DNA of 64,000 nucleotides from the NCBI RefSeq assembly GCF_024748615.1, contig NZ_CP087168.1:4526001-4590000 (forward strand). Reading direction: 5' to 3'. Both the position numbers and the translations under genes were made by a program. Position 1 is the stretch's first letter; the number at the start of each line of letters is the position of its first letter. Under the pieces are notes generated by a model. It saw only the letters and a program-made list of their open reading frames with translations. It made no database searches and had not been told where the DNA came from. Shown one piece after another: positions 56,688 through 62,545 of the stretch. This DNA is from Pseudomonas sp. B21-048 (GTDB lineage Bacteria; Pseudomonadota; Gammaproteobacteria; Pseudomonadales; Pseudomonadaceae).

Positions 56688-56710
56688 CTCTTCAGGCCCG
56701 ACCCCGTCCC

Positions 56711-56801
56711 TTGTGGGAGCTGGCTTGCCTGCGATAGCGCAGTGTCAGGCAACATCAATATTGCTGGGCTGACCTCATCGCAGGCAAGCCAGCTCCCACA
56801 G
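56711..56801. repeat. REP pair, family B copy 3
   Basis: TTGTGGGAGCTGGCTTGCCT and AGGCAAGCCAGCTCCCACA face each other. It has a variant core (GCTGGCTTGCC) and lies in the convergent gap between the glutaredoxin and GST genes. Confidence 0.82.
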
Positions 56802-56835
56802 GTTAGTGCATGGCCAGAAAATCAGTGGTTAGCAC

Positions 56836-58803: not shown

Positions 58804-60114
58804 TCAGACTTTCTCGCTTTGAACCTGAACGTACAACGAACGCCCGGCACCGAGGCCGGCGATGATCGCGCCGAGGCCGATGACGCCGAAGATCCAGCCC
58901 AGGGAACTCCAGCCGCCGGTCCAGTCATGCACCACGCCGACCGCGAACGGCCCCATGGACGCCAGGGTGTAACCGAAGCCCTGAGCCATGCTCGACAGAT
59001 TGGCCGCGACATGAGCATCCCGCGAGCGCAGCACGATCAGGGTCAACGCCAGGCTGAACGTGGCGCCCTGCCCCAACCCCAGCAGGATCGCCCAGCCCCA
59101 CAAGCCATCAATCGGCGCATAAAGGCAACCGAACAAACCGCCGAGGGTCATTGCCATGACGATCACGATTGCCAGCCGCTGATCCTTGCCGCGCGTCGCC
59201 AGCCAGGGTGCTGCCAGCGAGCTGATCAACTGGACAATCACCGAACCCGACAACACCAGCCCAGCCTGGGTTGGCGTCAGACCGCGGCCGATCAGAATCG
59301 ACGGCAGCCAGCCAAACACGATGTAGGCCAAAGACGATTGCAGACCCATGTACAAGGTCACTTGCCAGGCCAGCGAATCACGCAGCAGGCCTCGGACCCG
59401 ATAGGCAACATGATGCGCGCCGTGCTTCTGACCGACTTGCGGCAGCCAGAAAATCGCCGCGACCAACGCTGGAACCACCCAGAAGCCGAGACCCAAGGGC
59501 CAGCTTTTGTCGAAATGTTCGCTCAACGGCACGGTTGCCCCTGCCGCCATGGCCGCGCCCAGGCACAGTGCCATGGTGTAGACACCGGTCATGGTGCCGG
59601 CCTGTTTCGGGAAGTCGCGTTTGACAATGCCGGGTAGCAACACGCCGATCACCCCGATGCTGGCGCCGGCCAGCACGCTGCCGGCGAACAGGCCGACCTC
59701 GCCGAATGAACTGCGCAAAATGATCCCGCCGGCCAGCATCAGAAGAATCCCCAACACCACTCGCTCGGCACCAAAACGTCGTGCCAGCACCGGCGCCAAT
59801 GGCGCGAACAGACCGAGGCAGAGTACCGGCAAGGTCGTCAGCAACCCGGCTTGGGCGGCCGATAGCCCCAGCGTCTTCGAGATTTCGCTGAGCATCGGCG
59901 CCATGCTCGACAACGCCGGACGCAGGTTCAGCGCCACCAGAATCAGGCCGAGCAACAACAGCCATGGCCGCCGCAGGACCGGGTGAGTTTGCTGAACCTG
60001 TTCGTCATCGGCCTCGGCGTCGATCAACAGCTCTTCGAGCTCCGCCGTACGCTTGAGCTCAGTGATGCTGCTGACCTGCTGGGTGGACATGGGGTTCTCG
60101 GTTTCAAGGTTCAT
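58804..60114 (-). CDS. MFS transporter, CynX/NimT type
   Basis: 436 residues, about 12 membrane segments after an ~48-residue hydrophilic N-terminus. LILVALNLRPALSSMAPMLSEI is the hallmark of the CynX/NimT (cyanate / 2-nitroimidazole) subfamily. The substrate is not evident. Its start overlaps the last 11 bases of the upstream GntR gene, so the regulator probably controls it. An alternative ATG at 60090 would give a product eight residues shorter. Confidence 0.85.
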   Translation of the reverse strand: MNLETENPMSTQQVSSITELKRTAELEELLIDAEADDEQVQQTHPVLRRPWLLLLGLILVALNLRPALSSMAPMLSEISKTLGLSAAQAGLLTTLPVLCLGLFAPLAPVLARRFGAERVVLGILLMLAGGIILRSSFGEVGLFAGSVLAGASIGVIGVLLPGIVKRDFPKQAGTMTGVYTMALCLGAAMAAGATVPLSEHFDKSWPLGLGFWVVPALVAAIFWLPQVGQKHGAHHVAYRVRGLLRDSLAWQVTLYMGLQSSLAYIVFGWLPSILIGRGLTPTQAGLVLSGSVIVQLISSLAAPWLATRGKDQRLAIVIVMAMTLGGLFGCLYAPIDGLWGWAILLGLGQGATFSLALTLIVLRSRDAHVAANLSSMAQGFGYTLASMGPFAVGVVHDWTGGWSSLGWIFGVIGLGAIIAGLGAGRSLYVQVQSEKV

Positions 60115-60763
60115 TGATCAACTGCCTCGACAGGGCTTTGGCCCGTTCCGGGTCGCGTTGCTCGACGGCATCGAGCAGTTCGACATGAAGGTCGAACACC
60201 GCTTGGCGTCGGGGTGAGATGTTCAGGGTCTGGCGCAAGTGCGCGCCGACGATGCTGGAGAAATAGCGATACAGCTCGCTGAGTGTCGGGTTGTGCGCCG
60301 CATCCACCAGTCGACGGTGAAACACCAGATCGCAGGCGATGTAGGTGTCGAGATCGCCGTGGTAATGACTGCCACTGACACCTAGCGCCTCGCGCAATGC
60401 CACCAGGTCTTCATCGGTGCGGCGTAACGCCGCGAGGCCGATGGCTTCGACTTCCAGAATGTGCCGGGTTTCCCGAGCCTGTTCCTGAGTACAACGGGAC
60501 AGCGCCTTCATGGTGTCCAGCGGATCAATCACCGCCCGCAGATAACTGCCGTCGCCCTGGCGAATCTCGATTAACCCGGAAAACGCCAACACGCGCATGG
60601 CTTCGCGCACCGTGTTGCGGCTGATGCCCAACTCAGACGCCAGTTCCGGCTCGGTGGGCAAGCGCTGGCCGACCGTCCAGACGCCTTCGGTGATGCGCAG
60701 GCGTAACTGATCCAAGGCCTGATCGACCAGGGATCGTTTAATTAATGGAGAAATGTCTGACAT
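60104..60763 (-). CDS. FadR-type GntR transcription regulator
   Basis: 219 residues. The winged helix is in the N-terminal ~70 residues (GQRLPTEPELASELGISRNT then VREAMRVLAFSGLIEIRQGDGSYL) and an all-helical FCD effector domain follows. These regulators usually bind small organic acids and repress neighbouring genes. ATG 60763 is preferred over TTG 60784. Two palindromes just upstream are candidate operators. Confidence 0.88.
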   Translation of the reverse strand: MSDISPLIKRSLVDQALDQLRLRITEGVWTVGQRLPTEPELASELGISRNTVREAMRVLAFSGLIEIRQGDGSYLRAVIDPLDTMKALSRCTQEQARETRHILEVEAIGLAALRRTDEDLVALREALGVSGSHYHGDLDTYIACDLVFHRRLVDAAHNPTLSELYRYFSSIVGAHLRQTLNISPRRQAVFDLHVELLDAVEQRDPERAKALSRQLINEP

Positions 60764-60777
60764 AGGATTCGCCCTTT

Positions 60778-60816
60778 CATCCAATCATAGGATGAATTTT
60801 CTGACATGTTAGTCAG
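60778..60816. promoter_or_regulatory. candidate GntR operators
   Basis: CATCC-N7-GGATG (60778-60794) and CTGAC-N6-GTCAG (60801-60816) lie 15-53 bases upstream of the regulator's ATG. Their position fits autoregulation of the regulator-transporter pair. The second resembles the spacing of FadR-subfamily half sites less well than a TNGTNNNACNA core would. Confidence 0.5.
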
Positions 60817-60875: not shown

Positions 60876-60906
60876 TTGGTCAAAATTACCCTTTAAGGGT
60901 AATTTT
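60876..60906 (+). promoter_or_regulatory. mqsRA promoter and operator palindrome
   Basis: AAAATTACCC-N5-GGGTAATTTT (60882-60906) is an exact 10-bp inverted repeat. It fills the spacer and overlaps the -10 of a candidate promoter, TTGGTC (60876-60881), 18 bases, TAATTT (60900-60905). MqsA antitoxins repress their operon from such palindromes. Confidence 0.72.
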
Positions 60907-60929
60907 AGGGATGGGATTCACAGTTTCTT

Positions 60930-61242
60930 ATGGAAAAGAACACACCCCACTACAACTTGGCGGTGATCAAGGCAGATGTCAGGCGACTTGGAAGAAAAGC
61001 ATTCACCAAGACCGCAGAAAAAAACGGCATGGATCTCGGCTTTAGCCTCAGAGAGATGCAAGAGGTCGTTTTCGAGTTGCAAAACAAGATGTTGTACAAA
61101 TCGATGCCCCCCCCATGACGATCATCGAGTCTGGCAGGACGTGTATCACATCAATTCACAAGATCTGGAGATTTACATCAAGGTGACGTACCGCCCTGCC
61201 GGCGGCCCACCCGTAATCTCCTTCAAGGAGAAAAACCCATGA
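60930..61242 (+). pseudogene. mqsR: frameshifted MqsR toxin
   Basis: The first frame begins MEKNTPHYNLAVIKADVRRL and runs through NKMLYKSM, then a run of eight C (61107-61114) leads to a TGA at 61116. Skipping one base resumes in another frame with DDHRVWQDVYHINSQDLEIY and ends ISFKEKNP. Together these give a ~103-residue MqsR, a RelE-like mRNA interferase that cuts at GC(U/A); E. coli MqsR has YKSMTTYSDHTIWQDVY at the same place. The stop of the second frame overlaps the mqsA ATG. It may be a pseudogene, a phase-variable tract or a sequencing error. Confidence 0.85.
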
Positions 61243-61723
61243 AAACCCAGCAATGTTTCAGCTGCGGTGCACGTGAGGGAATGAGGCATTTCGAAGGGCG
61301 CGGTGAAACCCTGAGTGTCAAGGCATGGAGCGCCGTGTAGATGATCTTTCTGGCTGGGAATGCCAGCAGTGCGGGGAAATCGAGTGGGCCCCCGATAGTG
61401 CAGAGCGTTATGGGGAAGCAGGTGATGCGCTGGTCATCGCTGCCAAGCAAATGATCGGCGCCGAGATGAAGCGCATCCGCCGCAAGTTGCACCTTACGCA
61501 AAAAGAAACGGTGCAACTGCTGTCAGGCGGCGGGCACAACGCGTTTTCACGGTACGAGCGCGGCGAAGTGCTTGCGCCGAAGGCGTTGATGCTGCTAATG
61601 CGCCTGCTGGATCGCTACCCGCACTTGCTCGCCGATGCGAAAACCTTGGGCGAAGGGGCAGATTTGAGGGGGGGGTTCAAATATACCGAGCATAAGGAAC
61701 ATGAAACCCTCACCGTTTCCTGA
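61239..61723 (+). pseudogene. mqsA: frameshifted MqsA antitoxin
   Basis: ATG 61239 has AAGGAG nine bases upstream and encodes MKTQQCFSCGAREG, the first zinc CxxC. The frame ends early at a TAG (61338-61340) after ETLSVKAWSAV. One frame over, from about 61325, the protein resumes as MERRVDDLSGWECQQCGEIE with the second CxxC and an Xre-type HTH (LTQKETVQLLSGGGHNAFSR). The reading is restored by one extra G near AAGGCATGG (61318-61326). The native protein would be about 161 residues. Without the fix the DNA-binding half could only be made by reinitiation. Confidence 0.83.
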
Positions 61724-61730
61724 GCCACAT

Positions 61731-61764
61731 AAAACAAACCCGGCGCGAGGCCGGGTTTGTTTTT
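61731..61764. terminator. terminator between mqsA and aapP
   Basis: ACAAACCCGG / CCGGGTTTGT around a short loop is flanked by A and T runs. It separates convergent mqsA and aapP and can serve both strands. Confidence 0.87.
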
Positions 61765-61780: not shown

Positions 61781-62545
61781 TCAATGCAGAATCTGGCTCA
61801 GGAACAGCTTCGTACGCTCATTCTGCGGGTTGTCGAAGAAGTCGTTCGGCGCAGCCTGTTCGACGATTTCACCCTTGTCCATGAAGATCACGCGGTTGGC
61901 CACGGTACGGGCGAAGCCCATTTCGTGGGTTACGCAGAGCATGGTCATGCCGTCTTCGGCCAGGCCGATCATGGTGTCCAGAACCTCTTTCACCATCTCT
62001 GGGTCGAGTGCCGAAGTCGGTTCGTCGAACAGCATGATTTTCGGTTTCATGCACAGGGCACGGGCAATCGCCACACGCTGTTGCTGGCCACCGGACAATT
62101 GCCCCGGGAATTTATGCGCCTGCTCCGGAATGCGTACGCGTTCCAGGTAATGCATGGCGATTTCTTCGGCCTTGCGCTTGGGCATCTTGCGCACCCACAT
62201 CGGTGCCAGCGTGCAGTTCTGCAGGATGGTCAGGTGCGGAAACAGGTTGAAGTGCTGGAATACCATGCCGACTTCGCGGCGGATCGCTTCGATCTGCTTG
62301 AGGTCGTTGGTCAACTCCACGCCATCGACCACGATGCGGCCTTGCTGGTGTTCTTCCAGACGATTGAGGCAACGGATGGTGGTGGATTTGCCGGAACCCG
62401 ACGGGCCGCACAAAACGATACGCTCGCCTTGCTTGACGTTCAGGTTGATGTCTTTCAACACGTGGAACTGGCCGTACCACTTGTTCACGCCCTGCATCTG
62501 AATAATGCCTTCAGGGCTCACAGGCTGTTTGATCGCTTCACTCAT
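61781..62545 (-). CDS. aapP: general L-amino acid ABC transporter ATPase AapP
   Basis: 254 residues. Walker A is [10 protein letters not shown], the signature [15 protein letters not shown], and Walker [13 protein letters not shown]. It matches the ATPases of polar amino acid transporters and follows its two permease genes (11-base gap from aapM). TAGGAG precedes the ATG. Confidence 0.93.

What the first reader, a model, noticed from the sequence alone, without database searches (positions are those of the whole stretch)
60882..61723. mqsRA toxin-antitoxin locus with a single-base frameshift in each gene
Both halves of MqsR and of MqsA are recognisable and collinear with the family, but each is split between two frames by one base: an extra C in a C8 run in mqsR and a missing G near 61318-61326 in mqsA. 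The operator palindrome, the mqsA Shine-Dalgarno and the ATGA junction are intact. The likely order is toxin loss first, then relaxed selection on the antitoxin. Two independent hits in 800 bases, beside ~65 intact genes, also raise sequencing error, programmed shifting or phase variation.
Basis: partly seen in the sequence, partly recalled or inferred. Interest (0 to 1): 0.75.

Follow-up and report, generated by a model that had tools for sequence, protein, structure and literature searches.

The report
Recently broken mqsRA toxin-antitoxin genes
A Pseudomonas chromosome carries a common toxin-antitoxin gene pair in which each gene has been knocked out of frame by one base while its control site is still perfect; this looks like ordinary, recent gene decay.

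Summary
The two frameshifts are really in the sequence. MqsR (PF15723) is matched by two adjacent pieces in different frames, profile 1-56 and 57-95. MqsA (PF15731) is split near residue 28. Operator, mqsA Shine-Dalgarno and ATGA junction are intact. Two details change. The C8 tract (61107-61114) is not a slipped ancestral C7: relatives have a mixed stretch one base shorter there. The three closest relatives have both genes in frame. In a 304-kb control, 174 genes of one relative were compared; 11 were flagged, and only mqsR and mqsA proved to be plain internal one-base frameshifts, so sequencing error is unlikely. Of 132 related loci, 13 have mqsR disrupted or incomplete with mqsA in frame and none the reverse, by a piece test. 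Best reading: a recently dead mqsRA locus, toxin probably first. A 132-aa frame still encodes the MqsA DNA-binding domain and might act as a leftover autorepressor. Low novelty.

The parts
60882..60906 (.). MqsA-type operator: inverted repeat with 10-bp arms and a 5-bp centre, intact
   Evidence: Sequence. A palindrome of this type lies within 900 bp upstream of the MqsA C-part in 135 of 155 loci scanned, copies of the window included. Its 17-bp core occurs at one place in the whole genome.
60930..61118 (+). mqsR N-terminal piece, 62 aa, ends early at TGA 61116-61118
   Evidence: PF15723 positions 1-56, E 3.3e-11; E. coli MqsR 3hi2, weak, E 0.01
61107..61114 (+). C8 tract where the mqsR frame breaks; relatives have a mixed stretch one base shorter
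   Evidence: Alignments
61115..61242 (+). mqsR C-terminal piece in another frame, to the native TGA 61240-61242
   Evidence: PF15723 positions 57-95, E 1e-10, for query 61099-61242
61225..61230 (+). Shine-Dalgarno of mqsA (AAGGAG)
   Evidence: Sequence, by eye
61239..61340 (+). mqsA N-terminal piece, 33 aa with the first Cys-x-x-Cys, to TAG 61338-61340
   Evidence: no Pfam hit on its own; aligned to relatives
61318..61323 (+). site of the one-base loss in mqsA
   Evidence: Alignments
61325..61723 (+). mqsA C-terminal piece, 132 aa from an internal ATG: second Cys-x-x-Cys and the HTH domain
   Evidence: PF15731 positions 30-129, E 1.9e-22; TIGR03830 99.9 bits; E. coli MqsA structure 3fmy, E 5e-11
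61736..61764 (.). terminator-like hairpin after mqsA
   Evidence: Read by eye from the sequence; not tested

Best explanation
This is a chromosomal mqsRA type II toxin-antitoxin locus of a Pseudomonas that has recently become a pseudogene pair. Shown: each gene carries a net one-base change that shifts its frame, the control elements are intact, the closest relatives have both genes in frame, and the own-genome search finds no other MqsR. Inferred: the toxin died first; that removed the need for neutralisation, so loss of the N-terminal (toxin-binding) half of MqsA was tolerated. The C-terminal half, with the DNA-binding and dimerisation domain, is still encoded from an in-frame internal ATG 13 bases upstream of the early stop. 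If it is translated it could still repress the one remaining operator, but by analogy with E. coli it should not neutralise toxin.
For: Adjacent, collinear Pfam halves in different frames. Own-genome search finds only these two MqsR halves. L056, L057 and L058 (94, 94 and 90% identical at the locus) have both genes in frame. Control: of 183 genes called in 200 kb of QTF5, 174 had a homologue in 304 kb of this genome; 161 were scored intact, 2 partial, 11 flagged. Of the 11, mqsR and mqsA are internal one-base shifts, one is a truncated and rearranged gene, seven differ only near an over-extended start, and one looks like a wrong-frame call. Disrupted or incomplete mqsR beside an in-frame mqsA recurs in 13 of 132 loci. 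Of 14 hand-picked genomes, 12 have an mqsR lesion. G008 shows a second double break with an AACCT-N3-AGGTT palindrome intact. In E. coli, MqsA-C binds the promoter but does not protect from MqsR; MqsA-N does protect (PMC2791442, passages).
Against: Most pieces still look constrained (dN/dS of mqsA-C against L056 0.14; mqsR-C 1 synonymous and 0 nonsynonymous; mqsR-N is the exception with 1 and 5). So decay is very recent, or one lesion could be an error. The order of events is not resolved by substitutions. No reads and no other strain of the same species were available.
Confidence: 0.86

Rival explanations
1. Sequencing or assembly error in one or both genes.
For: Two lesions about 210 bases apart in a gene pair that otherwise looks mostly constrained; one lies in a homopolymer.
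Against: No other internal one-base frameshift among 174 compared genes, 55,240 aa (flags followed up). The C8 site differs from relatives by substitutions as well as length. The mqsA site is not a long homopolymer. One contig, 99.95% complete.
Confidence: 0.08
2. Phase variation: slippage of the C8 tract switches mqsR on and off.
For: A run of 8 is a plausible slippage length; only 4 G/C runs of 8 occur in 304 kb of this genome and none is longer.
Against: No aligned relative that covers the site has a C tract there. The antitoxin's toxin-binding half is broken by a separate lesion outside any long tract, so an 'on' state would be unopposed.
Confidence: 0.03
3. Programmed ribosomal or transcriptional frameshifting makes full-length proteins.
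For: C8 could act as a slippery site in mqsR.
Against: Intact relatives read straight through both sites. Breaks in other genomes lie at different places.
Confidence: 0.02

Closest known systems
MqsR/MqsA of E. coli K-12 (structures 3HI2, 3GN5, 3FMY; PMC2791442)
   Same: Toxin-first order (recalled for E. coli), Cys-x-x-Cys pairs, C-terminal HTH, palindromic operator; Pfam families PF15723 and PF15731.
   Different: Both genes are out of frame here. The palindrome is of the TACCC-N5-GGGTA type, not ACCT-N3-AGGT (the latter as given in PMC5422877, passages).
MqsR/MqsA of Pseudomonas putida KT2440 (PMC5422877)
   Same: Same genus and family; there MqsA represses its own operon through a palindrome before mqsR (passages).
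   Different: KT2440 has a functional pair with the palindrome TTAACCTGGAAGGTTAA; the window's pair is broken and its palindrome differs.
mqsRA of Pseudomonas sp. QTF5 (L057) and A-RE-19 (L056)
   Same: Same site, 94% identical over the queried 1.1 kb, identical operator core.
   Different: Both genes are in frame.
Decayed TA loci with a broken toxin, e.g. yacAB of Shigella flexneri and parDE of Caulobacter (PMC7354431, passages)
   Same: Toxin inactivated by a frameshift or listed as a pseudogene.
   Different: There an antitoxin is left; here the antitoxin gene is broken too.

Membership tests
MqsRA type II toxin-antitoxin system | MqsR sequence family (PF15723) | tested here: met
   Two pieces over cut-off, positions 1-56 and 57-95
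MqsRA type II toxin-antitoxin system | MqsA sequence family (PF15731 / TIGR03830) | tested here: met
   C-terminal piece, 80.2 bits and 99.9 bits, both over cut-off
MqsRA type II toxin-antitoxin system | Toxin gene first, antitoxin gene directly after | tested here: met
   Sequence; ATGA overlap
MqsRA type II toxin-antitoxin system | Palindromic operator before mqsR | tested here: met
   binding by MqsA not tested
MqsRA type II toxin-antitoxin system | Whole reading frames able to make toxin and antitoxin | tested here: not met
   Each gene split between two frames
MqsRA type II toxin-antitoxin system | mRNA cleavage by MqsR and neutralisation by MqsA | not testable with these tools
   Needs the bench
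Pseudogene pair | Intact orthologues in close relatives at the same site | tested here: met
   L056, L057, L058 in frame, aligned through the flanking GntR gene
Pseudogene pair | Relaxed selection in the window's lineage | tested here: inconclusive
   3 window-branch changes counted in mqsR pieces, 4 in mqsA pieces; Fisher p 0.49 and 1.0

The most novel reading that the evidence does not exclude
The locus is not simply dead. The 132-aa frame starting at ATG 61325, 13 bases before the early stop at 61338, may be translated by termination-reinitiation. It would give a free-standing MqsA DNA-binding domain that still represses the single intact operator: an orphan autorepressor. A second genome (G008) with the same double break and an intact palindrome would then mark a repeatable route of mqsRA decay.
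Probability: 0.12. Interest if true: 0.4.

Novelty: new member of a known kind. Interest (0 to 1): 0.2.

Why it matters
It is a snapshot of a chromosomal toxin-antitoxin pair soon after inactivation, with control elements still perfect. Set beside its relatives (mqsR disrupted or incomplete and mqsA in frame in 13 of 132 loci) it supports the view that mqsRA can be lost in Pseudomonas and that the toxin goes first. This is expected rather than surprising.

Tried and rejected
Rejected: a simple C7-to-C8 miscount, because the aligned relatives have no C7 there. Three apparent broken genes inside the window besides mqsRA, at genome positions 4527378-4528637, 4579350-4580584 and 4581264-4582334, differ only near over-extended starts; an open frame reaches the relative's C-terminal end in each. 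A first frameshift control with a naive ORF caller against G036 gave many false alarms and was replaced. The pattern with a 4-base centre found nothing because the true centre is 5 bases. Plasmid search: one weak match, 6% of the query. No Rfam match at gathering threshold and no tRNA in the window.

Further flags, followed up: against Irchel 3A7, 6 of 91 compared genes were flagged: mqsA (fused in that call to the end of mqsR), four that differ only near the start (one of them checked base by base, where QTF5 agrees with this genome), and one that matches over only 9% of its length. Against G036, 4 of 53: mqsR, mqsA and two that differ only near the start. In the opposite direction 4 of 173 and 5 of 92 genes were flagged; I did not follow these up.

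Papers: searches. The listings (15 of 133 shown, 1, 5, none) showed no title about a double-broken mqsRA in Pseudomonas; this is not proof of absence. I read passages only, of PMC5422877, PMC2791442, PMC7354431, PMC13048404 and PMC6918082.

Limits: the 80 named loci were picked by an MqsA query, which favours loci with mqsA. The 132 loci hold some genomes twice (L014 and L089 look like one genome, so the 13 are at most 12 genomes), and the piece test was not checked by eye in each. The 14 genomes were hand-picked for weak, split or stopped MqsR matches, plus two whose match was whole (G103, G004). In one search the alignment held 104 rows, the window included, after identical ones and those without a suitable stretch were dropped; some rows do not cover the C8 site.

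Full report
What is there. The window is a stretch of a 5.71-Mb single-contig chromosome, 99.95% complete. The nearest named relatives at this locus are Pseudomonas sp. A-RE-19, QTF5 and Irchel 3A7; that they belong to the fluorescens group is my recollection, not a result. Between a GntR-family regulator (60104-60784, minus strand) and a convergent ABC transporter ATPase (61781-62545, minus strand; recognised by eye from the translation) lies an mqsRA locus. It has a perfect palindrome (60882-60906), mqsR, a Shine-Dalgarno at 61225-61230, an ATGA junction at 61239-61242, and mqsA.

The breaks. mqsR starts at ATG 60930 and runs into a stop at 61116-61118, just after a C8 tract at 61107-61114. 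The rest of the gene continues in another frame to the native stop at 61240-61242. The two pieces match PF15723 at positions 1-56 and 57-95 with E-values of 3.3e-11 and 1e-10, both over the curated cut-off. mqsA starts at ATG 61239 and stops at 61338-61340; the rest lies in the frame of ATG 61325 to 61723, matches PF15731 positions 30-129 and carries the second Cys-x-x-Cys and the HTH, which aligns to E. coli MqsA structures (3fmy, E 5e-11). The own-genome search finds only these two MqsR halves.

Against relatives, the C8 tract stands where they have a mixed stretch one base shorter that codes for Thr-Thr or a similar pair in the close relatives; the window carries substitutions as well as a net gain of one base. 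So it is not a slipped C7.

Are the breaks real? I compared 304 kb of this genome around the window with 200 kb of the QTF5 contig that carries the locus. Of 183 genes called in QTF5, 174 had a homologue; 161 were scored intact, 2 partial, 11 flagged. Two of the 11 are mqsR and mqsA. One is a gene that I take for a PTS phosphotransferase (by eye), of which only two stretches and an inverted scrap are found in the 304 kb. Seven differ only near an over-extended start, with an open frame in this genome to within 3 residues of the relative's C-terminal end. The last has four scattered stops, no gap in the DNA alignment, and lower protein than DNA identity (85 against 94%), as expected of a wrong-frame call. 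Flags against Irchel 3A7 (6 of 91) and G036 (4 of 53) led to no further internal one-base shift. Flags in the opposite direction (4 of 173 and 5 of 92) were not followed up. Together with the substitutions at the C8 site this makes a sequencing artefact unlikely, though not impossible.

How recent? Against L056, mqsA-C has 10 synonymous and 5 nonsynonymous changes (dN/dS 0.14), mqsR-C 1 and 0, mqsA-N 1 and 0; mqsR-N is the exception at 1 and 5. Changes assigned to the window branch alone, leaving out codons with gaps, number 3 in the mqsR pieces (1 synonymous, 2 not) and 4 in the mqsA pieces (3 and 1). Their make-up does not differ from the two sister branches (Fisher p 0.49 and 1.0); the intact neighbour GntR has 5 and 4 on the window branch. 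So the breaks are young, and the order cannot be read from substitutions.

Relatives. Of 135 loci tested, 3 are copies of the window. Of the other 132, 109 have both genes in frame; 13 have mqsR with an in-frame stop, a frame change or a half not found while mqsA is in frame; 10 show no mqsR and at most an MqsA C-part. None has mqsA split with mqsR whole. The set is biased towards loci with mqsA and holds some genomes twice. Across the genus draw, 179 of 398 genomes have an MqsR match at E 0.001 and 200 of 398 an MqsA match over the cut-off. Of 14 genomes picked mostly for weak, split or stopped MqsR matches, 12 have an mqsR lesion, at differing places. One of them, G008, has mqsR split near residue 50 and mqsA split near residue 24, with an AACCT-N3-AGGTT palindrome intact. 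G404 has a split mqsR and no MqsA over the cut-off. In G030 about 100 bases matching mqsA lie between the same flanks. These look like stages of decay.

Mechanism. In E. coli, MqsA-N (residues 1-67) binds zinc and neutralises MqsR, while MqsA-C (69-131) dimerises and binds the promoter; MqsR with MqsA-C alone arrests growth (PMC2791442, passages). In P. putida, MqsA represses mqsRA through a palindrome (PMC5422877, passages). In the window MqsA-N is destroyed and MqsA-C is left. Losing MqsA-N beside an active toxin should be harmful, so the toxin most likely died first. This step is inference, supported by the pattern in relatives. The C-terminal frame begins with an ATG 13 bases upstream of the early stop, so reinitiation is possible; the operator core occurs at one place in the genome. 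Whether this product is made is unknown.

Verdict.

Noticed in passing
G000:C1:4509233-4510677, outside the window (in L141): A PTS phosphotransferase-like gene, whole in QTF5, is found in the 304 kb searched only as two stretches and an inverted scrap.
   Followed up: partly
G008:C1:761671-762345 (L202, L213): A second mqsRA locus with a frame change in each gene and an intact palindrome of another type.
   Followed up: partly
genus draw: Several genomes have a strong MqsA match but no MqsR row (for example G025, G123, G144, G294, G303): candidate orphan antitoxins.
   Followed up: partly
window about 491-597, 2632-2750 and 56700-56810: Short sequences found in many copies in relatives, perhaps REP-type repeats; not identified by any tool.
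   Followed up: no
window 61107-61114: Net insertion and substitutions are packed into eight bases, which might be one complex mutation rather than several.
   Followed up: no
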